A stretch of 36,262 bases of DNA from an uncultured Rhodospirillaceae bacterium (GTDB taxonomy: Bacteria; Pseudomonadota; Alphaproteobacteria; Rhodospirillales; Magnetospirillaceae), in the NCBI GenBank assembly GCA_903901915.1, contig CAIUSV010000052.1:1-36262 (forward strand). The letters run 5' to 3'. The position numbers and the translations under genes are program-made. Below, one piece after another: positions 12,686 to 33,061 of the stretch (positions are counted from its first letter, which is position 1; the number at the start of each line of letters is the position of its first letter). A model generated the notes under the pieces. That model saw only the letters and a list, made by a program, of their open reading frames with translations, did no database searches and was not told the origin of the DNA.

Positions 12686-12686
12686 G

Positions 12687-12752: not shown

Positions 12753-12773
12753 AAAAATTGTGCAGCGCACAAT
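12753..12773 (-). terminator. Intrinsic terminator of the marR gene
   Basis: Read on the minus strand, ATTGTGC-GCT-GCACAAT forms a 7-bp stem with a 3-base loop and runs into a short T tract, 18 bases after the marR stop. It separates marR from the operon promoter further on. Confidence 0.6.
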
Positions 12774-12790
12774 GCGGCCCGGCAACCGTG

Positions 12791-13264: not shown

Positions 13265-13345
13265 AAGCACCCCGTTGTCCTGATCGCCCTGGCGGATTCG
13301 CGACATCCGACAGCCATTGACAAAGCTATGATAGTCCATGCACAT

Positions 13346-13363
13346 TTGTTCGTATACAAACAA
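13346..13363. promoter_or_regulatory. Putative MarR operator, site 2
   Basis: TTGTTCGTATACAAACAA is palindromic except for one central C/A pair around GTATAC. It lies in the 116-base divergent region between marR and enamidase, just downstream of a TATGAT -10-like hexamer (13327-13332) and 17 bases before the enamidase ATG. It matches site 1 at 16 of 18 bases. Confidence 0.65.
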
Positions 13364-13380
13364 CATGCGGGGAGGGCGCC

Positions 13381-14541: not shown

Positions 14542-14554
14542 AAGACGTACGGCC

Positions 14555-16468: not shown

Positions 16469-16470
16469 GA

Positions 16471-18764: not shown

Positions 18765-18836
18765 GCTGAGGGGTCCTCGAAACATCGGCACTATAACTTT
18801 AGAATATACTAATGTTTCGAGGGTGGGAAGGATATC

Positions 18837-18878: not shown

Positions 18879-20036
18879 TCAGTCGCTCAGCACCCAGTCG
18901 CCGTTCTTCACCTCGATCATGTGATAGGCGTCGGCACCGAGGCCGAGATGGTCGGTGGGCGACATGTTGACCTTGCCGGCGGTGCCGATGAAGCCGGTGG
19001 TCTTCTCGATCTCGTCCCTGACCTTGGCCTTGTCGGTACCGCCGGCCCGCGTGATGGCGCCGATGGCGATCATCAGCGAATCCCAGCCGTGCCCGGCCAA
19101 GGTGCTGACGTCCTGGGGCTTGTTGCGCTCCTCGAACATGTGCTTGAAGTTGACCACCACCGGCCGCTGGGGATCGCTGGCGGGAAGCTGTTCGGCGACG
19201 ATCAGGGCGCCGGCGGCAAGCCGCATGCCATCGGCGGCATTGCCCACCAGCCGCAGGAACTCGCGCGATGCGACCCCCGGCGATTGATAGACCGGGATGG
19301 TGAAGTTGAGCTGGCGGATATTCTTGGTGACCACGGCGGGGCCGTTGCCGGTGCCGAACACGAACAGCGCCTGGACTCCGGCCGCGCCCCGGATTTTCGT
19401 CAACTGGGCGGTGACATCCGGGTCCTTGGGAGAATAGACCTCGTCGGCGACGATCTCGACGCCGTATTTCGGCGCCAGGGCGACGGTGTGGTCGTGGCCG
19501 GATTTGCCGAAGCCGACATTCTCGGACAGGATCGCCAGCTTGGTCAGGCCGCGCGCCTTGAGTTCGGCCAGGACGCGATCGGCGGCCATGCGGTCGGTCG
19601 GCGGCACCTTGAATACCCATTTGCGCACCGGATCGACGATGCCGACGCCGCCGCCCAGCGAGATGTAGGGGATCTCGGCGCGTTCGATCAGCCCCAGCAC
19701 CGCCATGCTGGTGGGGGTGCCCGAGCCGCCGATGATGATATCGACCTTGTCGTTGTCGATCAGGCGCTTGACGAAGGTGGTGGCCTTTTCCGGCTCGGAG
19801 CCGTCGTCGTACATGGTCATCTGGATCTTGCGTCCAAGCACGCCGCCTTCGGCATTGACCTTGTCGATCAGCATGTCGAGCGTGCGTTTCTCGGGGTCGC
19901 CCATAAGCGACATTACCCCGGTCACCGATAGGAACACGCCGATACGGATATCGTCGGCGGCACGGGCCGGTGCTACGACCCCACTTACACCCATGACAAC
20001 GGCCAGGACTGCCCCGGCGACGGCTTTCCAGTTCAT
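18879..20036 (-). CDS. Orphan ABC substrate-binding protein (LivK/aromatic-acid type)
   Basis: A 385-residue periplasmic binding protein. The signal peptide (MNWKAVAGAVLAVVMG, cleavage near APARA) precedes ADDIRIGVFLSVTGVMSLMGDPEKRTLDM. The segments GGSGTPTSMAVLGLIERAEIPYISLGGG and LTKLAILSENVGFGKSG are reminiscent of binding proteins for aromatic acids. ATG 20036 has GGAGG 6 bases upstream and overlaps the fdsA stop as ATGA, so it belongs to operon 2. No permease or ATPase accompanies it, and the only matching importer in the window is LivFGHM at 755-4091. The ligand is probably the methylated substrate whose methyl group the operon consumes, an inference from position. Confidence 0.85.
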   Translation of the reverse strand: MNWKAVAGAVLAVVMGVSGVVAPARAADDIRIGVFLSVTGVMSLMGDPEKRTLDMLIDKVNAEGGVLGRKIQMTMYDDGSEPEKATTFVKRLIDNDKVDIIIGGSGTPTSMAVLGLIERAEIPYISLGGGVGIVDPVRKWVFKVPPTDRMAADRVLAELKARGLTKLAILSENVGFGKSGHDHTVALAPKYGVEIVADEVYSPKDPDVTAQLTKIRGAAGVQALFVFGTGNGPAVVTKNIRQLNFTIPVYQSPGVASREFLRLVGNAADGMRLAAGALIVAEQLPASDPQRPVVVNFKHMFEERNKPQDVSTLAGHGWDSLMIAIGAITRAGGTDKAKVRDEIEKTTGFIGTAGKVNMSPTDHLGLGADAYHMIEVKNGDWVLSD

Positions 20037-22789
20037 GACGACCTCCCTCGGTGTTGTGGTGTGGTATTGGCCACCGTCACCTGAACCGCCGTAACCTTGA
20101 ATTCCGGGCAACTGGTCGCCCAGTCGGAGTTGTCGGTGGTGATCTTGTTGGTGCCCGATTCGGGGAAATGAAAGGTGGTATAGACCACTCCCGGCGGCAC
20201 TCGTTCGGTGACGGCGGCGCGCAGGGAGGTGTGGCCGGTTCGCGATGCGATGGCGACCACGTCACCGTCGCCGATGCCCCGGTCCTCGGCATCGTGGGGG
20301 TGGATTTCAAGAACATCCTCGCCATGAAAACGCAGGTTGCCGGTTCTTCGGGTCTGGGCGCCGACGTTGTAGTGGGCGAGGGTGCGGCCGGTGGTCAGCA
20401 ACAGCGGAAAGCGGCCGCTGACTTTTTCGTCGGTGGGGACGTATTCGGTGGTGATGAACCGCCCCAATCCGCGGGCAAAGTGATCGACATGCATGATCGG
20501 GGTGCCGTCGGGCGCTTGCGGATTGCAGGGCCACTGGATCGACCCCAGTTCCTCCAACCTGGCGTAGCTGATGCCGCGGAAGCTGGGGGTGAGGGCGGCG
20601 ATCTCGGCCATGATCTCCGCCGGATGGGAGTAGGGCATGGCCTGCCCCAGGGCGGCGGCCAGGGCGACGGTGACTTCCCAGTCAGCCTTGCCGGCCAGCG
20701 GCGCCATCACCCGCCGCACGCGGGAAATGCGGCGCTCGGCGTTGGTGAAGGTGCCGTCCTTTTCCAGGAATGACGAGCCGGGCAGGAAGACATGGGCGTA
20801 GCGGGCGGTTTCCGACAGGAAGATGTCTTGGACCACCACGCACTCCATGTTTTCCAGCGCGGCGATGACGTGATGGGTGTTGGGGTCGGATTGGACGATG
20901 TCCTCGCCCTGGATGTAGAGGCCCTTGAAACCGCCGGTGCAAGCGGCGTCCAGCATGGCGGGAAGGCGCAGGCCGGGTTCGGGGTCCAGCGCCACCCCCC
21001 AGGTCCGCTCGAACGAGGCGCGGACGCCGTCGTCGGCCACCGAACGGTAGCCGGGCAACTCATGCGGGAACGAACCCATGTCGCACGAGCCCTGGACGTT
21101 GTTCTGTCCCCGCAGTGGGTTCACCCCCACGCCGTCGCGGCCGATATTGCCGGTGGCCATGGCCAGATTGGCGATGGCGATCACTCCGGTCGAGCCCTGG
21201 GAATGTTCGGTCACCCCCAGACCATAGAAGATGGCGCCGTTGCCGCCGGTGGCGTAAAGCCGGGCGGCGGCGCGCAGGTCGGCGGCGGCGACGCCGCTGA
21301 TCGCCTCGGTGGTCTCGGGCGAATGTTCGGGTCGCGCCACGAAGTCGCGCCATTCGGTGAACGAGCCGGTATCGCAGCGGGCGGCGATGAATTGTTCGGC
21401 CAGCAGGCCCTCGGTGACGATGACGTGGGCCATGGCGGTCAGCACCGCCACGTTGGTGCCGGGGCGCAAACGCAGGTGATGGTCCGCCCCGGCATGGGGC
21501 GAGTCCACCATGGCGATGGCGCGGGGATCGACCACGATCAGCCGGGCGCCCTGGCGCACCCGTCGCCGCAGGCGTGATCCCACCACCGGATGGGCGTCGG
21601 TGGGATTGGCCCCGACCAGGACGATGACGTCGGCCTTGTCGATGGAACCGAAAGTCTGGGTGCCGGCGGATTCGCCCAAGGTCTGCTTCAGCCCGTAGCC
21701 GGTGGGGGAGTGGCAGACGCGGGCGCAGTTGTCGATGTTGTTGTTGCGAAAGGCGGTGCGGACCAGCTTCTGGACCAGATAGGCTTCCTCGTTGGTGCAG
21801 CGTGACGACGCCAAGCCACCGACGGCGGTTCTGCCGTAGCGCGCCTGGATGCGGCTGAACTCGGCGGCGGCATGGGCCAGCGCCTCGTCCCAGCTCACCT
21901 CGCGCCAAGGGTCGGCCGTGCTGGCCCGCACCATGGGGCTGAGAATGCGGTCGGGGTGGGTAGCGTAGGTCCAGGCGAAGCGGCCCTTGACGCAGGCGTG
22001 GCCCTGATTGGCCTTGCCGTCGTCGTCGGGCACCATGCGGACCACCCGGTCGCCCTTGACCTCGGCGCGGAAGGCGCAGCCAACGCCGCAATAGGCGCAG
22101 GTGGTGACGACGTGGCGGTCGGGCCGCCCCTGGGCGATGACGCTGTTTTCCATCAGGGCGGCGGTGGGGCAGGCGGCGACGCAGGCCCCGCACGAGACGC
22201 AGGCCGAGTCCATGAAGGTTTGGCCTTGCCCCGCCGTCACCCGCGAGGCGAAGCCGCGCCCGCTGATGGTCAGGGCGAAGCTGCCTTGGGTCTCGCCGCA
22301 GGCGCGGACGCAGCGGTTGCAGACGATGCATCTGGCCGGATCGTGGGTGAAATAGGGATTGCTGGTGTCGGTGGCGCTTCCAAGATGGTTGGCGCCGCCG
22401 TAGCGCATCTGGCGCAATCCGACGGCGGCGGCCATGTCCTGCAACTCGCACATGCCGTTGGCGGCGCAGGTCAGGCAGTCGGTGGGATGGTCGGACAGGG
22501 TCAGTTCCATCACGCCGCGCCGCAACCGGGTCAGCAATGGCGACTGCGTTCGCACTTTCATGCCCGGTTCGACCGGGGTGGTGCAGGATGCCGGCGTGCC
22601 GCGCCGTCCCTCGATCTCCACCAGACACAGCCGGCACGAGCCGAATGGTTCGAGCTTGTCGCTGGCGCACAGCTTGGGGATGGTGGCGCCGGCCACGACG
22701 GCGGCGCGCATTACCGACGTGCCCGCCGGCACCGTTACCGCGATGTCGTCGATGCAGAGGCCGACGAAGGAGCCTGTCGCCTCGCTCAT
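20033..22789 (-). CDS. fdsA: NAD-dependent formate dehydrogenase alpha subunit FdsA
   Basis: Catalytic subunit, 918 residues, of a cytoplasmic Mo/W formate dehydrogenase (formate to CO2, electrons to NAD through FdsB/FdsG). In order: an N-terminal [2Fe-2S] domain (C41, C52, C55, C69), a His/Cys cluster segment (HPTDCLTCAANGMC), two ferredoxin-type motifs (CIVCNRCVRAC and CVSCGACVAACP), a further [4Fe-4S] motif (CAYCGVGC), and the bis-MGD domain. A cysteine in ARVCHSPTGYGL is the expected Mo ligand, so no selenocysteine is needed. The C-terminal domain ends with a formate dehydrogenase-type segment. The fdsC/fdhD and fdsD accessory genes are not in the window. It is coupled to a 12-codon mini-ORF upstream and to the binding protein downstream. 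Confidence 0.92.
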   Translation of the reverse strand: MSEATGSFVGLCIDDIAVTVPAGTSVMRAAVVAGATIPKLCASDKLEPFGSCRLCLVEIEGRRGTPASCTTPVEPGMKVRTQSPLLTRLRRGVMELTLSDHPTDCLTCAANGMCELQDMAAAVGLRQMRYGGANHLGSATDTSNPYFTHDPARCIVCNRCVRACGETQGSFALTISGRGFASRVTAGQGQTFMDSACVSCGACVAACPTAALMENSVIAQGRPDRHVVTTCAYCGVGCAFRAEVKGDRVVRMVPDDDGKANQGHACVKGRFAWTYATHPDRILSPMVRASTADPWREVSWDEALAHAAAEFSRIQARYGRTAVGGLASSRCTNEEAYLVQKLVRTAFRNNNIDNCARVCHSPTGYGLKQTLGESAGTQTFGSIDKADVIVLVGANPTDAHPVVGSRLRRRVRQGARLIVVDPRAIAMVDSPHAGADHHLRLRPGTNVAVLTAMAHVIVTEGLLAEQFIAARCDTGSFTEWRDFVARPEHSPETTEAISGVAAADLRAAARLYATGGNGAIFYGLGVTEHSQGSTGVIAIANLAMATGNIGRDGVGVNPLRGQNNVQGSCDMGSFPHELPGYRSVADDGVRASFERTWGVALDPEPGLRLPAMLDAACTGGFKGLYIQGEDIVQSDPNTHHVIAALENMECVVVQDIFLSETARYAHVFLPGSSFLEKDGTFTNAERRISRVRRVMAPLAGKADWEVTVALAAALGQAMPYSHPAEIMAEIAALTPSFRGISYARLEELGSIQWPCNPQAPDGTPIMHVDHFARGLGRFITTEYVPTDEKVSGRFPLLLTTGRTLAHYNVGAQTRRTGNLRFHGEDVLEIHPHDAEDRGIGDGDVVAIASRTGHTSLRAAVTERVPPGVVYTTFHFPESGTNKITTDNSDWATSCPEFKVTAVQVTVANTTPQHRGRSS

Positions 22790-22822
22790 GGTTTGTAGCC
22801 CCCAAGCGCCGGGCGGTCGCTC
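22781..22822. repeat. Dispersed intercistronic repeat, copy A
   Basis: The partner of 8921-8960, with about 37 matching positions. It covers the fdsA start codon and the fdsB-fdsA junction. The shared core GCGCCGGGCGGTCGCTC lies between the two genes in both cases. The homology continues only weakly into the coding regions. Confidence 0.75.
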
Positions 22823-22824
22823 AT
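22786..22824 (-). other. 12-codon mini-ORF linking fdsB and fdsA
   Basis: The frame MSDRPALGGYKP starts in the ATGA that ends fdsB and stops in the ATGA that starts fdsA. It fills the whole 31-base gap, so ribosomes could pass from fdsB to fdsA by two re-initiations. It sits on repeat copy A. Whether the peptide itself matters is unknown. Confidence 0.4.
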
Positions 22825-24341
22825 GATTGGAAATCCTCGGCGAAGTGCTCCAGCGCCGACAGCACCGGTATCGGGGTCATGCCGCCCATGGCGCAAAGCG
22901 AGGCGCCCTGCATCACCTCGCACAACTCGCGCAGCAGGGCAATTCGTCCGGCATCCTTGTCGGCGACGATGCGGTCGATGATCTCGACCCCGCGGGTCGA
23001 GCCGATGCGGCATGGGGTGCACTTGCCGCAGGATTCGATGGCGCAGAACTCCATGGCGAAGCGGGCTTGGCGTGCCATGTCGACGCCGCCATCGAAAACC
23101 ACCACGCCGCCGTGGCCCAGGGTCGCGCCGCGGGCGGCGAAGGCCTCGTAATCCAAGGGCGTATCCAGCAGTGACGGTGGCAGATAGGCCCCCAGCGGCC
23201 CGCCGACCTGGACGGCGCGCAATGGGCGGCCGCTGGCGGTGCCACCGCCGAAGTCGTCGATCAACTCGGCCAGGGTGAGGCCGAACGCCTTTTCCATCAG
23301 ACCGCCGTGACGGACGTTGCCGGCCAGTTGCAAGGCCAAGGTCCCGCGTGAGCGGCCCGTGCCGAATTCGCGATAGCATTCGGCGCCGCGCGCCAGGATC
23401 ACCGGCACCGTCGCCAGCGTCACCACGTTGTTGACGATGGTGGGCTGGCCGAACAGGCCGGAGATCGCGGGCAGGGGCGGCTTGGCCCGTACCACCGGGC
23501 GGTTGCCCTCCAGGCTTTCCAGCAGCGCCGTCTCCTCGCCGCAGACATACGAGCCGGCGCCCTTGCGCACCCGGACGCGGAAGGCGCGGCCCGCGCCCAG
23601 GACGTCATCGCCCAGCCAGCCGAGGCCGGTGGCAATCGTCACCGCTTGGTTCATGACCTCGAAGGCGCGGGGGTATTCGCTGCGGATATAGATGAAGCCT
23701 TCGCTTGCCCCCACCGCCAGACCCGCGATGGCCATGCCTTCCAGCAGCAGGAACGGGTCGCCCTCCATGAGCAGGCGGTCGGCGAAGGTGCCGGAATCGC
23801 CCTCGTCGGCGTTGCAGACGACATATTTCTGGGCGGCGGCGGCATCGCGGGTGGTGCGCCACTTGATGCCGGTGGGAAAAGCGGCGCCACCGCGCCCGCG
23901 CAGCCCCGAGTCGATTACCGTCTGGACGATGTCGGCGCCGAGGGCGGCGCGCAGCCCGGCAAGGCCGCCGTGAGCGAGATAATCGTCCGGCGACAGCGGG
24001 TCGGTGATGCCGACGCGGGCGAAGGTCAGGCGATCTTGTCGGCACAGCCAGGGCAGATCGTCCACCACCCCCAGGTTCAGGCGATGGCCGCCCCCGTTCA
24101 GGAAATCGGCATCGAACAGGGCCGGCACGTCCCCGGCCGCCACCGGGCCGAAGCCGATCCGGCCGGCGGCGGTGACGACCTCCACCAGTGGTTCCAGCCA
24201 GAACATCCCGCGTGAACCGTTGCGTATCAGTCGGATCGCGACTCCCCGCCGTCCCGCCTCGGCGGTCAGGGCGGCGGCCACCCGGTCGGCGCCCTGGGCG
24301 ATGGCGGCGGAATCGGCGGGGATGTAGACCGTGATGGTCAT
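22821..24341 (-). CDS. fdsB: NAD-dependent formate dehydrogenase beta subunit FdsB (NuoF-like)
   Basis: The 506-residue NADH/FMN subunit. A thioredoxin-like N-terminal domain of about 110 residues (fused NuoE-type, usual for FdsB) precedes the NuoF domain. The FMN/NAD-binding segments are GLRGRGGAAFPTGIKW and NADEGDSGTFADR, with the later KGAGSYVCGEETALLESLEG. The [4Fe-4S] ligands are C438, C441, C444 and C483. It receives electrons from FdsA and reduces NAD. The ATG overlaps the fdsG stop as ATGA. FdsG-FdsB-FdsA is the standard gene order. Confidence 0.92.
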   Translation of the reverse strand: MTITVYIPADSAAIAQGADRVAAALTAEAGRRGVAIRLIRNGSRGMFWLEPLVEVVTAAGRIGFGPVAAGDVPALFDADFLNGGGHRLNLGVVDDLPWLCRQDRLTFARVGITDPLSPDDYLAHGGLAGLRAALGADIVQTVIDSGLRGRGGAAFPTGIKWRTTRDAAAAQKYVVCNADEGDSGTFADRLLMEGDPFLLLEGMAIAGLAVGASEGFIYIRSEYPRAFEVMNQAVTIATGLGWLGDDVLGAGRAFRVRVRKGAGSYVCGEETALLESLEGNRPVVRAKPPLPAISGLFGQPTIVNNVVTLATVPVILARGAECYREFGTGRSRGTLALQLAGNVRHGGLMEKAFGLTLAELIDDFGGGTASGRPLRAVQVGGPLGAYLPPSLLDTPLDYEAFAARGATLGHGGVVVFDGGVDMARQARFAMEFCAIESCGKCTPCRIGSTRGVEIIDRIVADKDAGRIALLRELCEVMQGASLCAMGGMTPIPVLSALEHFAEDFQS

Positions 24342-24796
24342 GTCTGGCCTCGCGCGGCGTGGATCAGGGCATCGAGTCCGGCCGGGGTGACGCCGGCATG
24401 CAGCCCGGCCTCATCCACCAGGACTGCCGGTCCGCTGGCGCACAGGCCCAGGCAGAATACCGGTTCGAGGGTGATGGTGCCGTCGGCGGTGGTCTGGTGG
24501 AAGTCGCAACCCAGGCGGTCGCGAGCATGGTTGGCCACGGCGTCGGCGCCACGCGCCTGGCAGGCTTCGCCCCGGCAGATCCGCAAGGTCGTGCCGCCGC
24601 CCGGTTCGCGGCGGAAATGATGGTAGGCACCGATGGCGCCGTGGATCTCGGCTTCCGAACGGTTGAGCGCGGTGGCGATGAGGGGAACGGCGGCGGCGGG
24701 AACATGGCCCAATTGGTCCTGGATGGCGTGCAGCATCGGCAGCAGCGCCCCCGGCTGTGCCTTCAAGCTCTCGACGATGGCGGCGATATCCATCAT
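24338..24796 (-). CDS. fdsG: NAD-dependent formate dehydrogenase gamma subunit FdsG (NuoE-like)
   Basis: A 152-residue [2Fe-2S] subunit. The helical N-terminal part (GALLPMLHAIQDQLGHVPAAAVPLIA) is typical of NuoE/HoxE proteins, and the ligands are C74, C79, C115 and C119 (CRGEAC, CLGLC). AAGGAGG lies 6 bases before ATG 24796, followed immediately by a second ATG. The frame open upstream to 25396 is a shadow of the reductase gene. It overlaps metV-metF and fdsB, so the formate dehydrogenase is made from the same message as the methyl-transfer genes. Confidence 0.9.
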   Translation of the reverse strand: MMDIAAIVESLKAQPGALLPMLHAIQDQLGHVPAAAVPLIATALNRSEAEIHGAIGAYHHFRREPGGGTTLRICRGEACQARGADAVANHARDRLGCDFHQTTADGTITLEPVFCLGLCASGPAVLVDEAGLHAGVTPAGLDALIHAARGQT

Positions 24797-26103
24797 CCCC
24801 CGCCTCCTTTCCCCGGACCGGCCAGTCCTCGCACGATATCGGGCAACACGGTATGATCGGCACCGAACAGCATCAGATGGACGCCGCTTACCCCCGGCAG
24901 TCGCGATACCGCCTCCACCGTTTCGCGGGCGAGGCGGCAGCCTTCTTCCCTTAGATTGGCCGCCGTTTCCAGGCGATGGCGAACCTCTTCGGGGTAGTCG
25001 ATGCCGGGGATTCTCGGGATCATCTCCATTGCCGGTTTGGAAATCACCACCGGCACCCCGGCCAACAGAAACAAGTCGCGGTCCAGGCCGGCGTCGCGGA
25101 ACCGCCGCATGAAGTCGGCAAAGGCCGCCAAATTGAAGACCAGTTGCGTCTGGACAAAATCGGCGCCGGCTGCGGCCTTCTGTCGCAGGCGGCGAATGGG
25201 AACTTCGATCGGGGTCGAAAACGGATTGATGGCGACACCGATGAACGGACGCGGCGCGTTCTTCATGGCCTCGCCGGTAAAGTGGATGGTTCCGGTTTCG
25301 CGCAGATGGCGCGCCTCGTAGACCATCAACGACGAGTCCATGTCGAACACCTGCTTGATGCGGGGGTTGCCGGCATAGGAATCGCCGGTCAGACACAGCA
25401 CATTATGGATACCGTTGGCGTCGTTGGCGATCAACTCGGACACGAAGGAGGTCTTGGTCAGGTCGCGGCAGGTGAGCTGGCATACCGGCTCCATGCCGAA
25501 GCGCAGCAGTTCGAGGCAGGACCGCGCCGCCGGCAGCGACGGCTTGCCGTTGAGGTAGGCGGTGGCGTTGACCGCGTCGAAATGGCCCTGGATCGCCCCG
25601 ATTTCCTTGTCCAGGCGGGCGAAGTCGGCGTGGCGCGGCGAACGGATTTCGCAGGTGGCGACGAAACGCCCCGACTTGCAGGCGGCTTCCAGCCGCGAGG
25701 CGGTGGCCGGGGGCTGGCCGACTCTGGGGCTCGGCAGGTCGAGATAGGCCAGCGGCGTGGTGCCCGGCCGGTCCAGTCCGCTCAGCCAGTTGGCATAAGA
25801 CGAGGTGAAGAACAGCGCGGCGTCGGGCGACGGGTTGAGCGCCGGAACGCTGTCGCCGCCCTTGGCGGTGTGGGCGTGGATGCGGACCCAGACGCATTGG
25901 CGGTCGGGGTAGACCTCGCACATTTCGCCGACGGTGCCGCCGCAAGGACCGTTGCGCAGGCCCTTGGGACAGCTCATCGGACAGATCAGCCCGGTTCTGG
26001 ACAGCATGCACTGGCCGCAGGCGCGGCAATCGAAGGCGGTGCCCTTGAGAAAGGCCTCGGCCCTCGCCGCCGTGCGGCGGAGTATGCCCTTCAGGCTGGT
26101 CAT
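24793..26103 (-). CDS. metF: Fused MetV-MetF methylenetetrahydrofolate reductase
   Basis: The 436-residue protein begins with a cysteine-rich MTHFR_C/MetV-type domain (C26, C29, C32, C41, C45, C54, C62, C70; motif LICPMSCPKGLRNGPCGG) and continues from about residue 130 with a MetF TIM barrel (RFVATCEIRSPRH, VNATAYLNGKPS, VCQLTCRDLTKTSF, GDSY, GADFVQTQLVFN). In acetogens MetV and MetF are often separate genes. In this operon it would oxidise methyl-tetrahydrofolate to methylene-tetrahydrofolate, the reverse of biosynthesis. Its electron acceptor is not evident. ATG 26103 overlaps the amidohydrolase stop as ATGA; GTG 26112 is less likely. Confidence 0.88.
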   Translation of the reverse strand: MTSLKGILRRTAARAEAFLKGTAFDCRACGQCMLSRTGLICPMSCPKGLRNGPCGGTVGEMCEVYPDRQCVWVRIHAHTAKGGDSVPALNPSPDAALFFTSSYANWLSGLDRPGTTPLAYLDLPSPRVGQPPATASRLEAACKSGRFVATCEIRSPRHADFARLDKEIGAIQGHFDAVNATAYLNGKPSLPAARSCLELLRFGMEPVCQLTCRDLTKTSFVSELIANDANGIHNVLCLTGDSYAGNPRIKQVFDMDSSLMVYEARHLRETGTIHFTGEAMKNAPRPFIGVAINPFSTPIEVPIRRLRQKAAAGADFVQTQLVFNLAAFADFMRRFRDAGLDRDLFLLAGVPVVISKPAMEMIPRIPGIDYPEEVRHRLETAANLREEGCRLARETVEAVSRLPGVSGVHLMLFGADHTVLPDIVRGLAGPGKGGGG

Positions 26104-27278
26104 TGTCTCCACACCCCGAGAGGCGACCGCAACGTCCGGATATCGTCGAACGGCGATATCGCCAGCAGCACGGCATCGAAAGCCGCGCCCTTGCGCAACA
26201 CCGGATGGGGATGGCCGAAATGTCTGCGGGCGGACGCCGTGGCGGCGGTCAGGGTGGCGTCCAGCGACATCCCTGCCTCGACATAGCGCTCGATCTCGTC
26301 GATGACGGCGGCGCCATGCTCGACCCCCATGCTGCCGGCGTCGGTTCCGAGAAGCAGCGGCACTCCCATCCGGTGAGCCATCACCAGATGATGGGCGTGG
26401 TCGTCGAGGATGCGGCGCAGGTTAGCCACCGTCGGGGCCGACCAACCCACCGCCTCGGGATGCGCCCATTGGAAGTGGACGGGGCAGAAGGTGGGGGTCC
26501 AGGCGATGGCCTTGGCGGCCATGATCTCCAGGATCTCCCTGGTCATGAAGAAGCCGTGCTCGATCGAACCGACACCGGCTTCGGCCGCGACCGTCAACCC
26601 CTTGACGCCGCTGCAATGGGCGAAGGTGTTGCGGCCGCAGGACCGGGCGGCGTCGACCACACGGCGGGCATCTTCGGCGGAAAACTGCGGCTCGTCGGTA
26701 ACGGCGCCGGCGTCGAAATCGATGATGCCGGTCAGGATCAGCTTGATCTCGTCGTTGTCGGCGGCCAGTCCGGTTACCGAGGCGTGAATGTCGCCATCCT
26801 CGCCAACATCGGTGGCCATGAAGGCGCCATAGCGCTTGGGCCGCTTGACCCCCAGGCCGCCCGAACGGACCACGGGCATAGTGCCGGGATTTCGCCGCGC
26901 CTCATCGCGGATACGGTGATTGATGCCGTGGCGGTCACCGGCGTCGCGGACCACGGTTACCCCGGCGGCCCGCGCTTGGCGGGCGCTTTGGCGGGCGGCT
27001 TCGGTCAATCGCTCCAGCGGCTGTTTCAGGTGCTCGGACCGGGCCTTGCCGTCGGTGGGGGCGCCGTCGAGGAACAGATGGACATGGGCATCGACCAGAC
27101 CGGGCATCAGATAGCCACCGCGATGCACCGCCGCGCCGCGCTTGGCCAGAGCGTCGCCGTGATCGCCGGTGGCGATGTCGGCGATGATGCCATCTTCGAC
27201 CAGGATGGTGGTGGGTACGGGGGAATGGTTGGTCTCCCCGTCAAACCAGCCGGTGACGATGATGGCGAAGCTGTCCAT
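26100..27278 (-). CDS. Amidohydrolase family protein of the C1 operon
   Basis: A 392-residue binuclear-type amidohydrolase. H65 and H67 (DAHVHLF) are the first metal ligands. The lysine in DEIKLILTG may be the carbamylated bridge; NTFAHCSG and IEHGFF supply histidines, and LLGTDAGS the catalytic aspartate. It resembles imidazolonepropionase-like and prolidase-like cyclic-amidase members and differs from the enamidase in using lysine, not glutamate, at the bridge. It lies between the tetrahydrofolate methyltransferase and the reductase, 5 bases after the former and overlapping the latter. Either it acts on the methylated substrate or it replaces a folate hydrolase step. The frame upstream of 27278 is a shadow. 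Confidence 0.82.
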   Translation of the reverse strand: MDSFAIIVTGWFDGETNHSPVPTTILVEDGIIADIATGDHGDALAKRGAAVHRGGYLMPGLVDAHVHLFLDGAPTDGKARSEHLKQPLERLTEAARQSARQARAAGVTVVRDAGDRHGINHRIRDEARRNPGTMPVVRSGGLGVKRPKRYGAFMATDVGEDGDIHASVTGLAADNDEIKLILTGIIDFDAGAVTDEPQFSAEDARRVVDAARSCGRNTFAHCSGVKGLTVAAEAGVGSIEHGFFMTREILEIMAAKAIAWTPTFCPVHFQWAHPEAVGWSAPTVANLRRILDDHAHHLVMAHRMGVPLLLGTDAGSMGVEHGAAVIDEIERYVEAGMSLDATLTAATASARRHFGHPHPVLRKGAAFDAVLLAISPFDDIRTLRSPLGVWRQ

Positions 27279-27283
27279 GCCCC

Positions 27284-28162
27284 TTACGCCTTGTAGAACT
27301 TGCGCACGGCGCGCAGGGCGTTGCTGCCCGTCTGTTCCAGAAAGTTCCGGTAGGCGGCCAGCACGTAATGGTCGTCGGCCAGCCGCTGGTATCCCCGCCA
27401 CGGCGTGCCCAGCACGGTATCGAAGCCATGCTCGACGGTCAGTGACAGGAAGGCGTTCTCCAGACAGTGCTTGAGGTCGGAGCCGTCGGCGGCCTTGGGC
27501 GGCAATTGCTGGCCGATATTGGACAGCCCCCCCATCATGTGGACGCCCGTCAAATCGGGATCGGCGCCGATCATCTTGATGGCATCGATGGTGCTGCGGT
27601 TGAGGCCCTCGGTATCGGCGATGATGGCCGATACCGACATGTCGATGAAGATGTGGTCCAGCGGCATGCCATAATCGTTTTTCAGCCGCAGCGCCGCCCG
27701 GCGGGCGGTGCCGTAGATCTCCTCGGCGGTCTTGTTGCCTTTGGCGACGCCGTCTTCGACCCGCTCGGACGCCATCATCACCACCTTGAACTTGAAGCGG
27801 CCATACAGCTCCATCAGGTCCCAGCGATGTTCGGTGATGGAATTGACGATGGGAAGTTCGCCGCCCGCCTTGGCCGGGTCGTAACTGGACAGGCAGATTT
27901 CCTGCACCGTCTGGCTGGGGAAGTCGAAGGACAGCGGTGTCGTCACCACCGTTTGGATGGCGCGGATCACCTCGGCCATCCATTGCGGTTCGGTCAGCGC
28001 CCTCGCGCCGATATTGACGTTCTGGTAGCGCGCCCCGGCCTCGGCCTGCTTGATCGCCAGCGCCTGGATGCCGGGAATGTCGGAATTGTCGAACAACGCC
28101 TTGGTGCTTTTGAATCCGGGATTGATCCGCTCGCCGATGATGCTGATGTTAAAGCCGGTCAT
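27284..28162 (-). CDS. Methyltetrahydrofolate:corrinoid methyltransferase (pterin-binding, MtvA/AcsE-like)
   Basis: The 292-residue TIM-barrel enzyme has pterin-binding family marks: IIGERINPGFKST near the start, AGARYQNVNIGARA, LPIVNSITEHRWDLM, and toward the end GVHMMGGLSNIGQQLP. It should transfer the methyl group between the corrinoid protein and tetrahydrofolate. In demethylating systems it works as methyltransferase II, making methyl-tetrahydrofolate. ATG 28162 overlaps the activator stop as ATGA; the longer frame to 28246 lies inside that gene. With the corrinoid protein and the UroD-family enzyme it completes a three-component set like MtvABC of Moorella. Confidence 0.88.
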   Translation of the reverse strand: MTGFNISIIGERINPGFKSTKALFDNSDIPGIQALAIKQAEAGARYQNVNIGARALTEPQWMAEVIRAIQTVVTTPLSFDFPSQTVQEICLSSYDPAKAGGELPIVNSITEHRWDLMELYGRFKFKVVMMASERVEDGVAKGNKTAEEIYGTARRAALRLKNDYGMPLDHIFIDMSVSAIIADTEGLNRSTIDAIKMIGADPDLTGVHMMGGLSNIGQQLPPKAADGSDLKHCLENAFLSLTVEHGFDTVLGTPWRGYQRLADDHYVLAAYRNFLEQTGSNALRAVRKFYKA

Positions 28163-29949
28163 GACGTTTCCCCGTTGGTTAGAGCAATGTTGCTCATGAA
28201 CTTTTTCTGGAATTCCTTCGATCCGCTCATGTCCACGTATTGACATCGGGCGGCCAATTCAACCGACCGTCTCATGTCGGCGCGTGACAGCAGGATACGG
28301 CGCACTCCCAAGCCGGCGGCATTGCCCACCTGCTCGAAGCGCTCTGGCGGCAGGGCGGGAAGCAGGCCGATGGCGATACCGCTGGCAATGTCGATGTATT
28401 GGCCGAAGGCGCCGGCGATAATGAAGTGACGGATGTCGTCGGCTGCCAGCCCGGCGCGGTCGAGCAACAGGTCGGTGGCGGTGCGGATGGCGGCCTTGGC
28501 CAGTTGTACCGCGCGGATATCCTCCTGGGTCAAGACGACGCCCGGTGTCAGCCGGGCGGCCAGTTGACCGTCGTTGGAGATGACGTCGGCGTGGGCGGCC
28601 GACAGCCGGCCGCGCCGGTCCACCATGCCGGTGCCCAGCAGGCTGGCTACCGCGTCCAGCACTCCGGACCCGCACAGGCCGATGGCGGGCTTGTCGCCGA
28701 TGGTGCCGGTGACGATGCGGCCGTCGACCACGGCCACCCGCTCGATCGCCCCTTCGGCGGCGCGCATGCCGCAGGAGATGTGTCCGCCTTCCAGCGCCGG
28801 GCCGGATGGCGACGAGGCCGAAAGAATGACGCCGTCGTGGATCAGCGAGATTTCGGTGTTGGTGCCGATGTCCATCACCAGGCTGGTGCCGTCGCTCCAA
28901 CGGCTTTCGGTGGCGAGCAGGGCGGTGACGTGGTCGCCGCCGACGAAGCCGCCGACATTGGCCACCAGATGCACCCGGGCGCCGGGGCAGATGTCCAGTC
29001 CCAGCTCGGCGGCGCCGACCTCCATCGCCCCCGAGACCGCCGCGACGAACGGAGCACGCCCCAATTGGTGAACGGGCAGTCCGGCCAGCAGATGATGCAT
29101 GGCGGTGTTGCCGCAGATGGCGGCATCGATGATATCGGCCCGGTCGGCTCCCACCGCGTGGCAAAGGTCATGGGCCAGGGCGTTGAGACCGCCGAGAATG
29201 GCGAGGCGCAATTCCTCGCCGCCGGCCGGGGCGCGGATGGCGTGGTTGATCCGGCTGATGACGTCGGCTCCCCAGGCGACCTGGGGGTTTTCGATGCCGA
29301 TTCCGGCCAATCGCCGGCCGCTTTCGAGGTCGAGCAGAAAGGCGGCGGCGTTGGTGGTTCCCAGATCTACCGCCAAGCCGAGGAGCGGGCGGTTGACCGC
29401 GGAAAATCCGATGATCGAATCGCCGCGCAGGCGCACCCGTACCGCGCCGTCATGCCGCCGCAGCAGCTCCGGCAGTTGCCGTGCCGCCGTCAGTTCGATG
29501 GTGTCGACCGGGCGGTCCAGCGCGCGGGCCATCCGCTCGGTATCCCCGGTGGGGTCGGCCAGGGTGGCGGGCGGAACCTGGACATCGACGGCAACGATCC
29601 GGGCATCCACGGCGAGACATTCGCCATGTTCGCCTTCGGTTTCGGCCCGTACCACGGCGGCCAGGGAACGCGGAGCGATTTCGACGGCGCAGTCGGTTCG
29701 CGGCGTGATCCGGCAGGCGCGCAGCCAACTCCGGCCGTGCGATCCATCTTCGTCGGGATGATGCTCGATCCCGCCGCCGGCAATGCGAACCATGCAGGTG
29801 CCGCAGGTGCCACGTCCACCGCAGGCGCCGACGATGCGCACCCCGTTGCGCCGCGCGCTTTGAAACACGGTCTCGCCGGCGATGCCGCCGACCTTGCGGC
29901 CGAGATCGACGAAATCGAGGTGATGCGGGGGGCGGGGATGCTCGGACAT
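28159..29949 (-). CDS. Reductive activator of corrinoid proteins (RACo/AE-like, [2Fe-2S] plus DUF4445 ASKHA domain)
   Basis: A 596-residue ATP-dependent activator that rescues corrinoid protein accidentally oxidised to Co(II). Residues 1-85 are a plant-type ferredoxin domain with C43, C49, C52 and C79 (ACGGRGTCGTC, LRACR). A middle domain follows, then from about 215 an actin-like ATPase (AVDLGTTNAAAFLLDLESG, VMDIGTNTEISLI, CGSGVLDAVASLL, IAGAFGQYIDIASGIAIGLLP). Such proteins accompany methyltransferase systems of acetogens and methanogens, and are not needed for MetH. ATG 29949 starts 1 base after the preceding stop. Confidence 0.88.
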   Translation of the reverse strand: MSEHPRPPHHLDFVDLGRKVGGIAGETVFQSARRNGVRIVGACGGRGTCGTCMVRIAGGGIEHHPDEDGSHGRSWLRACRITPRTDCAVEIAPRSLAAVVRAETEGEHGECLAVDARIVAVDVQVPPATLADPTGDTERMARALDRPVDTIELTAARQLPELLRRHDGAVRVRLRGDSIIGFSAVNRPLLGLAVDLGTTNAAAFLLDLESGRRLAGIGIENPQVAWGADVISRINHAIRAPAGGEELRLAILGGLNALAHDLCHAVGADRADIIDAAICGNTAMHHLLAGLPVHQLGRAPFVAAVSGAMEVGAAELGLDICPGARVHLVANVGGFVGGDHVTALLATESRWSDGTSLVMDIGTNTEISLIHDGVILSASSPSGPALEGGHISCGMRAAEGAIERVAVVDGRIVTGTIGDKPAIGLCGSGVLDAVASLLGTGMVDRRGRLSAAHADVISNDGQLAARLTPGVVLTQEDIRAVQLAKAAIRTATDLLLDRAGLAADDIRHFIIAGAFGQYIDIASGIAIGLLPALPPERFEQVGNAAGLGVRRILLSRADMRRSVELAARCQYVDMSGSKEFQKKFMSNIALTNGETS

Positions 29950-29950
29950 C

Positions 29951-30634
29951 TCAGCTCTCCGCCGCGTCGGCGCGATGACCGGCCATCCGGCATTTCCCCC
30001 GGAATGGACAAGCATCGCACCGCGACCACCGGACCTCGGGCAGGTCGATGCCGATGCCGAAAATGGCCGAGGTGCTTTTGACCGGGCGTAGCATCGAGCG
30101 TTCGGAGACCTCGACCCCGATGGCGGCGCCCCCGGCCAGACCGACCACTGCCGCCTGAGTGTCGAGCGCCAGTCCGGGATCGCCCGACCGTAACTCGCCG
30201 GCCATGGACAGCCTTCGACGGCGGGCCTCGGCCATCAGCCGGTCTTCCATCAGGCGCGACACGCCGAACAACAGTTCATTGCCGAGACTGCCCAGGGCCA
30301 AGGCCAGGGAGCGGCGTCCGTCGGCGAACAGCTCGGCGGCACGGTCTTCCAGCGCCGTTCCCAAGGTGCAGACGCCGCAGGCCACCGCCGTCAGTTCTCC
30401 GGACTCGGGGATCAGCAGCGGGGCGGCCAGCCGTTCGCCGCCCACCAGAAGAGTATCTTGGGCAATACCATCCAGCGGGACGATGCGGCAACGATAGGAG
30501 CCCTTGCCAAGGTTTTCGGCCGCCGCCAACGCCATGGCCTGCTCGCGCTGGCGCCGGGCGACCGCCGATAGCCCCGGGCTCGGCGGGCAGGCGGCCAAGG
30601 CGGGCAGAACGTCGATGGCGTGGGCTTCCAACAT
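29951..30634 (-). CDS. MetH-activation-domain-like protein with C-terminal cysteine motif
   Basis: The 227-residue protein resembles the vitamin B12-dependent methionine synthase activation region. It has VACGVCTLGTALEDRAAELFADG and the helical LALALGSLGNELLFGVSRLMEDRL, and near the C-terminus ERSMLRPVKSTSAIFGIG, which corresponds to the S-adenosylmethionine-binding end of that fold. It then adds CDACPFRGKC (C206, C209, C215), a possible iron-sulfur or zinc site. Proteins of this type accompany corrinoid activators in methyltransferase operons. A part in reductive remethylation or in docking the activator is plausible. The start ATG has only a weak ribosome-binding site, 24 bases after the previous gene. 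Confidence 0.72.
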   Translation of the reverse strand: MLEAHAIDVLPALAACPPSPGLSAVARRQREQAMALAAAENLGKGSYRCRIVPLDGIAQDTLLVGGERLAAPLLIPESGELTAVACGVCTLGTALEDRAAELFADGRRSLALALGSLGNELLFGVSRLMEDRLMAEARRRRLSMAGELRSGDPGLALDTQAAVVGLAGGAAIGVEVSERSMLRPVKSTSAIFGIGIDLPEVRWSRCDACPFRGKCRMAGHRADAAES

Positions 30635-30658
30635 GTGCCAACCCCGCTTTCGCTGCGA

Positions 30659-31927
30659 TTACCCGCCGTATTTGCGGGCGGCGTCGAACATGGCCCGGAC
30701 GTTCTCCACCGGGGTTTCATCGGGAATGCCGAAGGCGCAGTCGAGAATCAGCCGCCCCCCCTTGTTGAAGACATTGTCCACCAGATGCCTGACTGCGGCA
30801 TCGACATCGGCGGGGGTTCCGGTGGTCATCATCGACGGCGACAGATTCCCGCGCAGCGCGACCACGTCCCCCAGCACCTCGAACGCCTTGACCATGTCGG
30901 TGCGCTCGAACCAGTAGATGCATTTGCCGGGCGGAACGTCCTTGATGATCTCCAGCCGTTTGGTGCAGTCGGCTTCCCACAGCGGCATGGGGATCAGGTC
31001 GGCATCGATCAGGTCGAGCAGCATCTGGCGGAACGGCGGCCACCAGAATTCGCGGAACTGCTTGTCGGACATGAAGGCGTCGGGCGCCCAGTGGATGGGG
31101 ATGAAAACGATGGGATTGCCCGTCGCCTTGGCGGTGGTGATTATCGCCCGGGTGAGGAATATCCGCGATTTGTCCAGCAGTTGAAGCAGCTTGTCCTTGT
31201 TGCGGTACAGGTCGGTCATCATGCCGCGGGCGCCGCGGAAATAGTCGGCGATGTAGTCGTAGGGCGACACCCCGGTACTGAGATAGGCGGTGGGAAAACC
31301 GAGGTCGGCCAGCTTCGCGGTCAGGGCGAGGTGATGGGCGGCCATGGTCTCCGCCTCCTCCGCCGCTTTGAAGATCTTCTCGAAGGCTTGGCGTACTCCC
31401 GGCTTGGCGAAACCGCGCAGGCCCCCCAGCAGCCGGAAATAGTAGAGGCCGGGCAGGACCGGCATGTCCTGGATGCCCTCGAAGGCGCCGGCGACTCGGG
31501 GCAGGTATTTTTGCAGGTAGAATCCGGTGGGGTCGAACAGGAATTCGTCGTATTCGTCCGCCATCATGTATTCGCGGTCGAGATACTGGAACGGCTGGTG
31601 GTCGCCGACACCGTGCCCCGGCCATTGCAGTTGCTTGAATTCGGCCGCTTCAAGCACCCGGCCCGAGGTGACTCCCTGGATCGGGGGCGAATAGATGTCG
31701 GGCTGGAATTCCAAAATCGCACGAGTGGCGATCTCGGCGGTCTTGTCGTAGTCGTACATCAACTGGCGGTGAGAAATGTCGCCATACTTGGCCAGCCAGA
31801 AGGTGGCCAGCATGGCCACCGGCATGCGGTCCGGCTGTTTGAGGGCGACGCAGTCCATAACCCGCCGCCAACGGGCGTCATGGGCCGCCTTGGCGTCGGT
31901 CGTCCGGGTCGGCGAGGCGGCGGTCAT
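30659..31927 (-). CDS. UroD-family substrate:corrinoid methyltransferase (MtvB/MtaA-like)
   Basis: A 422-residue member of the uroporphyrinogen decarboxylase superfamily that in this setting is a cobalamin methyltransferase, not a haem enzyme. It is longer than UroD and MtaA (about 340) and closer in size to the vanillate methyltransferase MtvB. Visible family features are LKQPDRMPVAML at the N-terminus, FIPIHWAPDAFMS, MPLWEADCTKRLEIIKDVPPG and the C-terminal LILDCAFGIPDETPVENVRAM. The cysteines in the last two are candidate zinc ligands; the classical HxC is absent. It should demethylate the growth substrate onto the corrinoid protein, with which it overlaps as ATGA. The substrate is unknown. 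Confidence 0.85.
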   Translation of the reverse strand: MTAASPTRTTDAKAAHDARWRRVMDCVALKQPDRMPVAMLATFWLAKYGDISHRQLMYDYDKTAEIATRAILEFQPDIYSPPIQGVTSGRVLEAAEFKQLQWPGHGVGDHQPFQYLDREYMMADEYDEFLFDPTGFYLQKYLPRVAGAFEGIQDMPVLPGLYYFRLLGGLRGFAKPGVRQAFEKIFKAAEEAETMAAHHLALTAKLADLGFPTAYLSTGVSPYDYIADYFRGARGMMTDLYRNKDKLLQLLDKSRIFLTRAIITTAKATGNPIVFIPIHWAPDAFMSDKQFREFWWPPFRQMLLDLIDADLIPMPLWEADCTKRLEIIKDVPPGKCIYWFERTDMVKAFEVLGDVVALRGNLSPSMMTTGTPADVDAAVRHLVDNVFNKGGRLILDCAFGIPDETPVENVRAMFDAARKYGG

Positions 31928-32586
31928 GCCGCCGCTCCTATCCACGACTTGGACAGTGCCACCGCGTCGACAGCGGTGGTGCCGAAGGCGTCCGCGCCGG
32001 TATAGCTGCGCACCGTCTCGTCGATCTGACCGCCGCCGATCATGATCTTCAACTTGTCGCGCAATCCCGCCTCCTCGATCGCCATGATGGTCTCCTTCAT
32101 GGAATCGAAGGCCAGGGTAAGGAAGCCGGACAGGCCGACGACGTCGGGTTTGAAGGCGGTGATCTCATCGATGAATTTTTGCACCGGTACGTCGATACCG
32201 ATATCCTTCACCTCGAAGCCGTTGATGTCGAGCATGAAGCAGACGATGTTCTTGCCGATGTCGTGCAGGTCGCCGTGGACCGTTCCGACCAGGACCTTGC
32301 CCAGCTTTCTGGGGGCTTCGCCGGGGCGCGACAGGATGAGCGGCTTGGCCAGCCCGCCGATGGTTTCCAGCATCTCGCCGGCCAGCACCAGTTCGGGCAG
32401 AAAATAGTCACCCTCCTCGAAACGTTTGCCGACGATATCCATGGCCAGGCGACAGAGTTCCAGAACCCGTAGCGGATCGGCCTTGTCGTCGAACAGCATG
32501 CGTTTGGCCAAGGCCAGCGCCTCGTCCTCGTTCATGTCGGCCAGCCAATCGACCAACTGCTTTTCCAGATCCGACAGCTCGTTCAT
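31924..32586 (-). CDS. Corrinoid (B12-binding) methyltransferase protein, MtvC/MtaC-like
   Basis: The 220-residue methyl carrier. Residues 1-90 are the helical cap (EKQLVDWLADMNEDEALALAKR, LPELVLAGEMLETIGG) and 95-220 the B12-binding Rossmann domain. The motif D106-L-H108-D-I-G111 supplies the lower-ligand histidine, with SGFLT at 153-157 and GGG at 184-186. It starts operon 2: ATG 32586 has GGGGGA 6 bases upstream. It would accept a methyl group from the UroD-family enzyme and donate it to the tetrahydrofolate methyltransferase. Confidence 0.92.
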   Translation of the reverse strand: MNELSDLEKQLVDWLADMNEDEALALAKRMLFDDKADPLRVLELCRLAMDIVGKRFEEGDYFLPELVLAGEMLETIGGLAKPLILSRPGEAPRKLGKVLVGTVHGDLHDIGKNIVCFMLDINGFEVKDIGIDVPVQKFIDEITAFKPDVVGLSGFLTLAFDSMKETIMAIEEAGLRDKLKIMIGGGQIDETVRSYTGADAFGTTAVDAVALSKSWIGAAA

Positions 32587-32989: not shown

Positions 32990-33061
32990 TAAATTTCGGT
33001 GGAGCGGTTGCGTTCGGCCAATGGGATGATTATACCGACGGCAGGCTTTCCGCGATGGGTG

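What the first reader, a model, noticed from the sequence alone, without database searches (positions are those of the whole stretch)
18879..32586. A complete corrinoid methyl-oxidation operon in a proteobacterial-type genome
Eleven genes from the corrinoid protein to the orphan binding protein are joined by overlaps or gaps of at most 31 bases. They encode a methyl-group path: UroD-family methyltransferase to corrinoid protein to methyl-tetrahydrofolate (MtvA-like) to methylene-tetrahydrofolate (MetV-MetF), plus NAD-linked formate dehydrogenase, and two activation proteins that keep the cobalt reduced. The component set is that of acetogen O-demethylases (MtvABC and activating enzyme), but the electrons would end as NADH, not acetate. 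No Wood-Ljungdahl carbonyl genes are present. Such a compact demethylation-to-formate unit is not something I know to be described in alphaproteobacteria.
Basis: partly seen in the sequence, partly recalled or inferred. Interest (0 to 1): 0.85.

Follow-up and report, generated by a model that had tools for sequence, protein, structure and literature searches.

The report
Anaerobic methoxy-group removal operon in Proteobacteria
An eleven-gene operon in a purple-bacterium relative most likely strips methyl groups from lignin-type aromatic compounds without oxygen and oxidises them; close relatives of its core occur in many other aromatic-degrading Proteobacteria.

Summary
Eleven minus-strand genes (32586 to 18879) are joined by six 4-base overlaps and gaps of 1, 5, 24 and 31 bases. 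The core is not peculiar to this genome: act2-raco-mtvA follows UroD in 48 of 62 named loci with room, and the amidohydrolase comes next in 42 of 48. Context points to aromatic O-methyl ethers: a VanA-like gene lies within 12 of 41 such loci (0.18 expected), and benzoyl-CoA reductase is over cut-off in 25 of 45 carrier genomes, this one included. I read it as an acetogen-type O-demethylase wired to tetrahydrofolate C1 oxidation instead of acetogenesis. FdsGBA is a local addition: no other locus read has it inside the operon, and FdsA is this genome's only Fdh-alpha match. No FdhD maturase was found, so its activity is uncertain. My bolder proposal, about one chance in three, is that the amidohydrolase releases formate from formyl-THF. 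Substrate and reactions are inferred, not shown.

The parts
31924..32586 (-). corrinoid protein, 220 aa, DLHDIG cobalamin motif
   Evidence: PF02310 + PF02607; D-x-H-x-x-G at residue 106
30659..31927 (-). UroD-family methyltransferase I (substrate to corrinoid), 422 aa
   Evidence: PF01208 over cut-off; nearest solved structure CdmB 9rui, E 2.2e-35
29951..30634 (-). MetH-reactivation-like protein, 227 aa, Cys206/Cys209/Cys215 invariant in all 34 aligned rows
   Evidence: profile A2 hits PDB 1j6r, E 5.9e-6; alignment; no Pfam hit
28159..29949 (-). RACo-type corrinoid reductive activase with 2Fe-2S domain
   Evidence: PF14574, PF17651, PF17650, PF00111 over cut-off
27284..28162 (-). methyltransferase II, MtvA-like (corrinoid to tetrahydrofolate)
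   Evidence: PF00809 over cut-off; PRK07535 102.8 bits, below its cut-off of 259
26100..27278 (-). binuclear-metal-type amidohydrolase; proposed formyl-THF (or methenyl-THF) hydrolase
   Evidence: PF01979; His65, His67, Lys179, His221, His241, Asp313 invariant in all 33 aligned rows; function inferred from genome patterns
24793..26103 (-). MetV-MetF fusion, methylene-THF reductase family
   Evidence: PF12225 + PF02219
24338..24796 (-). FdsG, NAD-linked formate dehydrogenase gamma subunit
   Evidence: PRK05988 203.8 bits, cut-off 198
22821..24341 (-). FdsB, NAD/FMN subunit of formate dehydrogenase
   Evidence: nuoF_fam 399.8 bits, below its cut-off of 559; 65 and 70% identical to copies beside FdsA in two other genomes
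20033..22789 (-). FdsA, molybdopterin/Fe-S formate dehydrogenase alpha, Cys type (CARVCHSP)
   Evidence: TIGR01591 901.6 bits, cut-off 666; the only match in the genome at E<=1e-60
18879..20036 (-). substrate-binding protein of a branched-chain-amino-acid/urea-type ABC transporter, apparent signal peptide
   Evidence: PF13458; 87 and 90% identical copies downstream of the related operon in two congeners
32999..33559 (+). divergent MarR-type regulator
   Evidence: PF12802/PF01047; relatives near the operon in L014/L023, L018, L031, L079

Best explanation
This is an anaerobic O-demethylase operon. The UroD-family protein moves a methyl group from a methoxylated aromatic acid (vanillate-like) to Co(I) of the corrinoid protein. 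The MtvA-like protein passes it to tetrahydrofolate. RACo, helped by the MetH-reactivation-like protein, re-reduces Co(II). MetV-MetF oxidises methyl-THF to methylene-THF, FolD (assumed elsewhere in the genome) takes it to formyl-THF, and formate is released (by the amidohydrolase and/or PurU) and oxidised by FdsGBA with NAD. The demethylated ring goes to the benzoyl-CoA pathway. Shown: gene content, order, conservation and genome context. Inferred: substrate, every reaction, and the direction of flow.
For: Families and spacing. Core act2-raco-mtvA after UroD in 48 of 62 named loci with room (4 of the 14 misses, L023, L027, L030 and L041, carry the core in another arrangement); corrinoid gene just upstream in 54 of 67. 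Closest solved protein CdmB, which PMC13222342 (passages) places next to the methoxy-aromatic demethylases MtvB, OdmB and VdmB. VanA-like Rieske demethylase in 15 of the 80 named loci by clustering, all 15 recovered by phmmer with one of them; in the 41 loci whose genomes were counted it lies in 12, against 0.18 expected from 44 genome-wide matches; VanA_C confirmed in 10 of 10 tested. VanB-like in 7, LigB-like in 6, an acyl-CoA synthetase of feruloyl type (type recalled) in 4 of the 80 by clustering; LigA and LigB in L073 and PobA in L070 named. BcrC over cut-off in 25 of 45 carriers, this genome included, and in 4 of 4 UroD-bearing against 21 of 56 other near relatives. FolD beside the operon in several loci (L069's named). 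No VanA match in this genome at E<=1e-45.
Against: No VanA, LigAB or CoA ligase gene was seen beside the operon in this window; the five-row Rhodospirillaceae UroD branch (support 91, not starred) has no VanA-linked member. VanA is missing from 29 of the 41 loci, and BcrC is not over cut-off in 20 of 45 carriers (9 have no match at E<=1e-20). BcrC is common in the genus anyway. I had no reference sequences of MtvB/OdmB/VdmB, so placement in that clade is indirect, and CdmB itself does not act on methoxylated aromatics (PMC13222342). Fds function is in doubt: no FdhD match in a 99.86% complete assembly.
Confidence: 0.72

Rival explanations
1. The UroD-type protein is a haloalkane (chloromethane-like) methyltransferase, as in CdmBCA, and the rest of the operon oxidises that methyl group.
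For: CdmB is the closest solved structure.
Against: VanA-like genes cluster with the operon across several UroD clades, LigAB or an acyl-CoA synthetase in a few; 25 of 45 carriers have BcrC over cut-off. CdmB is the only non-decarboxylase among the solved hits, so its rank says little.
Confidence: 0.08
2. The substrate is an N- or S-methyl compound (betaine, trigonelline, N-methyl heterocycle) carried in by the Liv-type binding protein.
For: A Liv/urea-type binding protein ends the operon; the other half of the window holds a xanthine-dehydrogenase-family hydroxylase gene set with its own Liv-type transporter.
Against: Known betaine and trimethylamine demethylases are MttB-type, not URO-D (recalled); the MT I here hits only URO-D in Pfam. 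Flanking genes in relatives include methoxyaromatic genes.
Confidence: 0.12
3. The amidohydrolase acts on the growth substrate or a peptide-like compound (amide hydrolysis) and not on a folate C1 carrier.
For: Its nearest solved relatives are amide and dipeptide hydrolases (Xaa-Pro dipeptidase 2qs8, Arg carboxypeptidases, ochratoxinase). PurU, a known formyl-THF deformylase, is present here and in most carriers.
Against: It travels with the core: next to mtvA in 42 of 48 loci; in Aromatoleum it sits with mtvA-raco-act2-corr-metVF on the strand opposite UroD; the stand-alone UroD loci L029, L032, L033 and L036 do not show it; three genomes without it have formyl-THF synthetase.
Confidence: 0.4
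4. The methyl group is used for biosynthesis (methionine, C1 supply) rather than oxidised.
For: MetF and MtvA-like enzymes are reversible in principle (recalled); the Mtg system links demethylation to methionine synthesis (PMC12478193, passages).
Against: FolD-like genes (L044, L060, L067, L069, L086) or HdrA-type redox proteins (L018, L069) follow the core in some relatives, and FdsGBA follows here.
Confidence: 0.08

Closest known systems
Acetogen O-demethylases MtvABC (Moorella), OdmABCD and VdmABCD (Acetobacterium dehalogenans)
   Same: Four-component set: UroD-family MT I, corrinoid protein, MT II to THF, activating enzyme
   Different: Sits in a proteobacterium with BcrC and no formyl-THF synthetase match; carries an amidohydrolase, a MetH-reactivation-like protein and here FdsGBA; methyl oxidised, not used for acetogenesis (inferred)
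CdmBCA chloromethane system (PMC13222342; PDB 9rui)
   Same: UroD-family MT I plus separate corrinoid protein plus MT II; best sequence match among solved structures
   Different: Different genome context; CdmB rejects methoxylated aromatics, while the neighbours here suggest them
CmuAB, aerobic chloromethane methylotrophs
   Same: UroD/corrinoid chemistry feeding THF oxidation to formate (recalled)
   Different: CmuA acts as MT I and corrinoid protein in one (PMC13222342, passage); here they are separate genes; the MtaA/CmuA model scores 33 bits, cut-off 235
MtgBCDE, glycine betaine demethylation in roseobacters (PMC12478193)
   Same: Corrinoid methyl transfer to THF in alphaproteobacteria
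   Different: MT I of MttB family (recalled) against URO-D here; tied to methionine synthesis
VanAB Rieske demethylase and LigM/DesA THF-dependent demethylases
   Same: Remove methyl from vanillate or syringate in Proteobacteria
   Different: VanAB is an oxygenase; LigM/DesA need no corrinoid protein (recalled). No VanA match in this genome; LigM/DesA were not searched for
FdsGBACD formate dehydrogenase (gene set recalled)
   Same: FdsG, FdsB, FdsA; the active-site Cys is conserved in the four sequences compared
   Different: The binding-protein gene follows fdsA, and no FdhD match was found in the genome; a congener's copy has FdhD next to fdsA

Membership tests
Acetogen-type corrinoid O-demethylase (MtvABC/OdmABCD) | All four components encoded together: UroD MT I, corrinoid protein, MT II, activating enzyme | tested here: met
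Acetogen-type corrinoid O-demethylase (MtvABC/OdmABCD) | MT I falls in the MtvB/OdmB/VdmB clade | tested here: inconclusive
   nearest solved protein CdmB, said in PMC13222342 to be close to MtvB, OdmB and VdmB; those sequences were not at hand
Acetogen-type corrinoid O-demethylase (MtvABC/OdmABCD) | Demethylates phenyl methyl ethers | not testable with these tools
   context only
Acetogenesis (Wood-Ljungdahl) link | Formyl-THF synthetase present | tested here: not met
   PF01268: no match in the genome
Acetogenesis (Wood-Ljungdahl) link | CODH/ACS present | not tested
   no search was made for it
CmuA chloromethane methyltransferase | UroD and corrinoid functions in one polypeptide | tested here: not met
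   separate genes 30659-31927 and 31924-32586
MttB/MtgB methyltransferases | MT I is MttB-type | tested here: not met
   only URO-D in Pfam for this protein at E<=0.01
FdsGBACD NAD formate dehydrogenase | FdsA equivalog with active-site Cys | tested here: met
   TIGR01591 over cut-off; aligned residues
FdsGBACD NAD formate dehydrogenase | FdsC/FdhD maturase available | tested here: not met
   PF02634: 0 matches in own genome; the other 4 of the 5 genomes searched have one
MetH reactivation protein family | Sequence similarity to MetH reactivation proteins | tested here: met
   1j6r E 5.9e-6 over about 110 residues; no Pfam hit, so remote
Formyl-THF hydrolase (proposed for the amidohydrolase) | Fits as a stand-in for PurU/Fhs in genomes that lack them | tested here: inconclusive
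   6 of 41 amidohydrolase-bearing genomes lack both by the cut-offs (a 7th, G090, is doubtful); 3 of 4 without it have Fhs against 5 of 41 with it; but PurU is present in this genome

The most novel reading that the evidence does not exclude
The operon is the unassigned oxygen-free demethoxylation route of anaerobic aromatic-degrading Proteobacteria. Its conserved amidohydrolase is a new kind of formate-releasing enzyme (10-formyl-THF or methenyl-THF hydrolase), a folate counterpart of the amidohydrolase-type FwdA/FhcA that hydrolyses formyl-methanofuran (recalled). With it the operon carries most of a methyl-to-formate path, to which different lineages attach different electron outlets: FdsGBA here, HdrA2-like plus MetV-MetF in Telmatospirillum, another formate dehydrogenase in Desulfuromonadaceae.
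Probability: 0.35. Interest if true: 0.85.

Novelty: new variant of a known kind. Interest (0 to 1): 0.7.

Why it matters
Lignin monomers carry methoxy groups, and how nitrate-reducing and phototrophic Proteobacteria remove them without oxygen is unsettled. In Rhodopseudomonas palustris the oxygenase-type VanAB is invoked even under anoxia (PMC12366328, passages). This operon, found beside VanA-like genes in some genomes and together with benzoyl-CoA reductase in many, is a concrete, testable alternative. It also places acetogen-style chemistry in non-acetogens, and it points to an unassigned amidohydrolase that may release formate from folate.

Tried and rejected
Considered and set aside: a one-genome curiosity (rejected). 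FDH as part of the conserved unit (rejected: of 80 named loci only L086 has an FdsA-like match over 300 bits, 44% identical). Amidohydrolase simply replacing PurU (not supported as stated: PurU is over cut-off in 33 of 45 carriers, this one included, and the four genomes with mtvA but no amidohydrolase are under the PurU cut-off too). The Fisher value of 0.014 for amidohydrolase against Fhs rests on 4 amidohydrolase-less genomes, three of them from one UroD branch, so it is suggestive only. Six of the 26 genomes lack the amidohydrolase at E<=1e-60; G101 and G104 were not tested for Fhs and, like G087, are small drafts (2.4 to 2.9 Mb). From the 'neither PurU nor Fhs' count I left out G065 (PurU split over two frames) and G090 (a 40-residue match to the C-terminal end of PurU, 26.5 bits); scores of about 100-130 bits were taken as PurN (recalled), not PurU.

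Limits: one search kept 80 of 93 relatives and looked for two conserved peptides, so distant UroDs are missed; several genomes give more than one locus. ORFs in relatives were called by my own script, which misses or overextends some; the LigB, VanB, FolD and synthetase counts are by clustering, with only representatives named by NCBIfam. Some names (TRAP binding protein in L086, MetV in L103, MarR-like in L012) are by eye. Promoter/terminator scan gave 6 promoter-like sites against 1.9 expected and 10 terminator-like against 8.9; nothing was built on it. A PADLOC scan of the amidohydrolase gave nothing. Papers: none read whole; PMC13222342, PMC10418091, PMC8630106, PMC6486533, PMC12478193, PMC7997838, PMC12366328 and PMC13289028 by passages, others by search listing and start of abstract only. 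The formyl-THF/amidohydrolase paper search listed nothing that looked relevant.

Full report
Setting. The window is the whole of contig C52 (36,262 bases) of a 4.10 Mb, 99.86% complete genome. So it is an alphaproteobacterium of the Rhodospirillales (placement recalled from those names).

Observation. Eleven minus-strand genes run from 32586 to 18879 with junctions of -4, 24, 1, -4, 5, -4, -4, -4, 31 and -4 bases. In order they are: corrinoid protein, UroD-family methyltransferase, a 227-aa protein without Pfam hits (act2), RACo, MtvA-like, amidohydrolase, MetV-MetF fusion, FdsG, FdsB, FdsA and a Liv/urea-type binding protein. A MarR-type gene is divergent at 32999. The 227-aa protein is a remote relative of MetH reactivation proteins (PDB 1j6r, E 5.9e-6) with a C-terminal Cys trio invariant in all 34 aligned rows.

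Conservation. UroD relatives occur in 4 of 60 near genomes counting this one. A profile scan of one genome per species kept 80 named loci of 93: mostly records of beta- and alphaproteobacteria (Azospirillum, Aromatoleum, Thauera, Sterolibacterium, Sulfuritalea, Ramlibacter; two labelled Gammaproteobacteria), some Geobacterales/Desulfuromonadales and one Terriglobia. A corrinoid gene is just upstream in 54 of 67 loci with room; act2-raco-mtvA follow in 48 of 62, and 4 of the 14 misses (L023, L027, L030, L041) carry the core in another arrangement; the amidohydrolase is next after mtvA in 42 of 48. UroD genes without the core beside them also exist (L029, L032, L033, L036 among others), and this genome has a corrinoid-UroD pair on C84 with its own binding protein (52% identical). 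This suggests substrate-specific front ends sharing one core. In Aromatoleum anaerobium the core, amidohydrolase included, lies on the strand opposite the UroD gene.

Substrate. Around the operon in relatives are VanA-like (15 of 80), VanB-like (7), LigB-like (6) and feruloyl-type acyl-CoA synthetase genes (4) by clustering. VanA_C was confirmed in 10 of 10 tested; LigA and LigB in L073 and PobA in L070 pass NCBIfam cut-offs, while the synthetase in L061 is just under its own (766.7 against 777 bits). As a control, VanA matches were counted in 45 carrier genomes: 44 in 31 genomes. By chance 0.18 would fall inside the 41 loci concerned; 12 loci have one and 29 do not. The VanA-linked UroDs are spread over several branches, but not the five-row branch that holds this window. 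Benzoyl-CoA reductase subunit C is over cut-off in 25 of 45 carriers and here; 9 of 45 have no match at E<=1e-20. Among near relatives it is in 4 of 4 with UroD and 21 of 56 without. This genome has no VanA match, so the operon may be its main way to demethylate such compounds; LigM/DesA were not searched for. The nearest solved relative of the UroD protein is CdmB; PMC13222342 places CdmB beside MtvB, OdmB and VdmB and says that CdmB itself does not react with methoxylated aromatics (passages). My reading is therefore aromatic O-demethylation, inferred from context.

Mechanism. Inferred steps: aryl-OCH3 to methyl-Co(III) (UroD protein); to methyl-THF (MtvA-like); Co(II) re-reduced by RACo with the reactivation-like protein; methyl-THF to methylene-THF (MetV-MetF); to formyl-THF (FolD, whose relatives by clustering sit next to the operon in L044, L060, L067 and L069 and one gene further in L086; L069's named; FolD was not searched for in this genome); to formate; to CO2 (FdsGBA). 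Electron outlets differ between lineages. In the Telmatospirillum draft the operon is followed by FolB, an HdrA2-like protein of 1543 aa, a putative MetV (by eye; no NCBIfam hit) and a MetF-family protein. L069 has FolD then an HdrA-like protein. L086 has a TRAP-type binding protein (by eye), FolD, an NAD/FAD reductase and another molybdopterin protein 44% identical to FdsA.

Formate dehydrogenase. FdsA is over the equivalog cut-off, its catalytic Cys and most Fe-S cysteines align with the three other sequences compared, and it is the only match at E<=1e-60 in the genome. But no FdhD match was found in the genome, whereas a congener's fds operon has FdhD next to fdsA. In Telmatospirillum the closest of the three Fds copies compared (75% in FdsA) lies near a TupA-like tungstate-transporter gene (214 bits, cut-off 400) and a MobB gene, on the contig that also holds BcrC. 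Activity of the window's Fds is therefore an open point.

Amidohydrolase. His65, His67, Lys179, His221, His241 and Asp313 are invariant in all 33 aligned rows; that these are the binuclear metal ligands is recalled knowledge of the superfamily. Nearest solved relatives are dipeptide and amide hydrolases. Its tie to the core, rather than to UroD, suggests a C1 role. PurU is over cut-off in 33 of 45 carriers and Fhs in 8 of 45. Six amidohydrolase-bearing genomes lack both (G060, G075, G094, G095, G097, G099); G090 is doubtful because of a short PurU-like fragment, and G065 has PurU in two frames. Of the four genomes among the 45 with mtvA but no amidohydrolase at E<=1e-60 (G087, G096, G098, G100), three have Fhs, against 5 of 41 with it (p 0.014; not phylogenetically independent, and drafts). 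This fits an enzyme that releases formate from formyl-THF, but PurU is present here and co-occurs in most carriers, so I give it about one chance in three.

Novelty. Parts and chemistry are known from acetogens. The combination (O-demethylase core in Proteobacteria often bearing benzoyl-CoA reductase, amidohydrolase, mostly no Fhs, variable electron outlet) was not seen in the listings of my ten paper searches, which cover open-licence full text only. Known neighbours in alphaproteobacteria are Mtg and Cmu (PMC12478193). For R. palustris, anaerobic demethylation is ascribed to VanAB (PMC12366328), and THF-dependent demethylases are named as able to act without oxygen (PMC7997838). I rate it a new variant of a known kind.

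Noticed in passing
window 755-15760: A separate gene set: Liv/Urt-type ABC transporter with a fused double permease, binding protein, two PF06684 proteins, a xanthine-dehydrogenase-family Mo hydroxylase with FAD subunit, a MarR-type gene, an amidohydrolase and a class III CoA-transferase; looks like another (hetero)aromatic catabolic operon.
   Followed up: partly
G000:C84:20850-22747 (L012 10839-12748): A second corrinoid-UroD pair (76 and 68% identical) with a MarR-like gene (by eye) and a 52% identical binding protein but no core genes in the 19 kb read; probably a second substrate using the window's core.
   Followed up: partly
whole genome G000: No FdhD match although an FdsA of 902 bits is present; the four other genomes searched have FdhD.
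   Followed up: partly
window 18879-20036: The binding protein is 87-90% identical in two congeners, while in the same operon there UroD is 71-75%, the corrinoid protein 63-65% and the other enzymes 32-53% identical: an odd mismatch of rates.
   Followed up: no
L106 (G060:C378): FdsGBA copy near a TupA-like tungstate-transporter gene and MobB, on the same contig as benzoyl-CoA reductase subunit C.
   Followed up: no
L103 and L018 17603-21265: FolB, an HdrA2-like protein of 1543 aa, a putative MetV and a MetF-family protein downstream of the same operon.
   Followed up: partly
window 15773-18791: HlyD, FtsX/MacB-type permease and ABC ATPase, co-directional 87 bases after the operon. In the loci the only HlyD match is one of 24% at the far end of L075; a distant HlyD (27%) and ABC set lies further upstream of the operon in the Telmatospirillum contig (L104).
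   Followed up: partly
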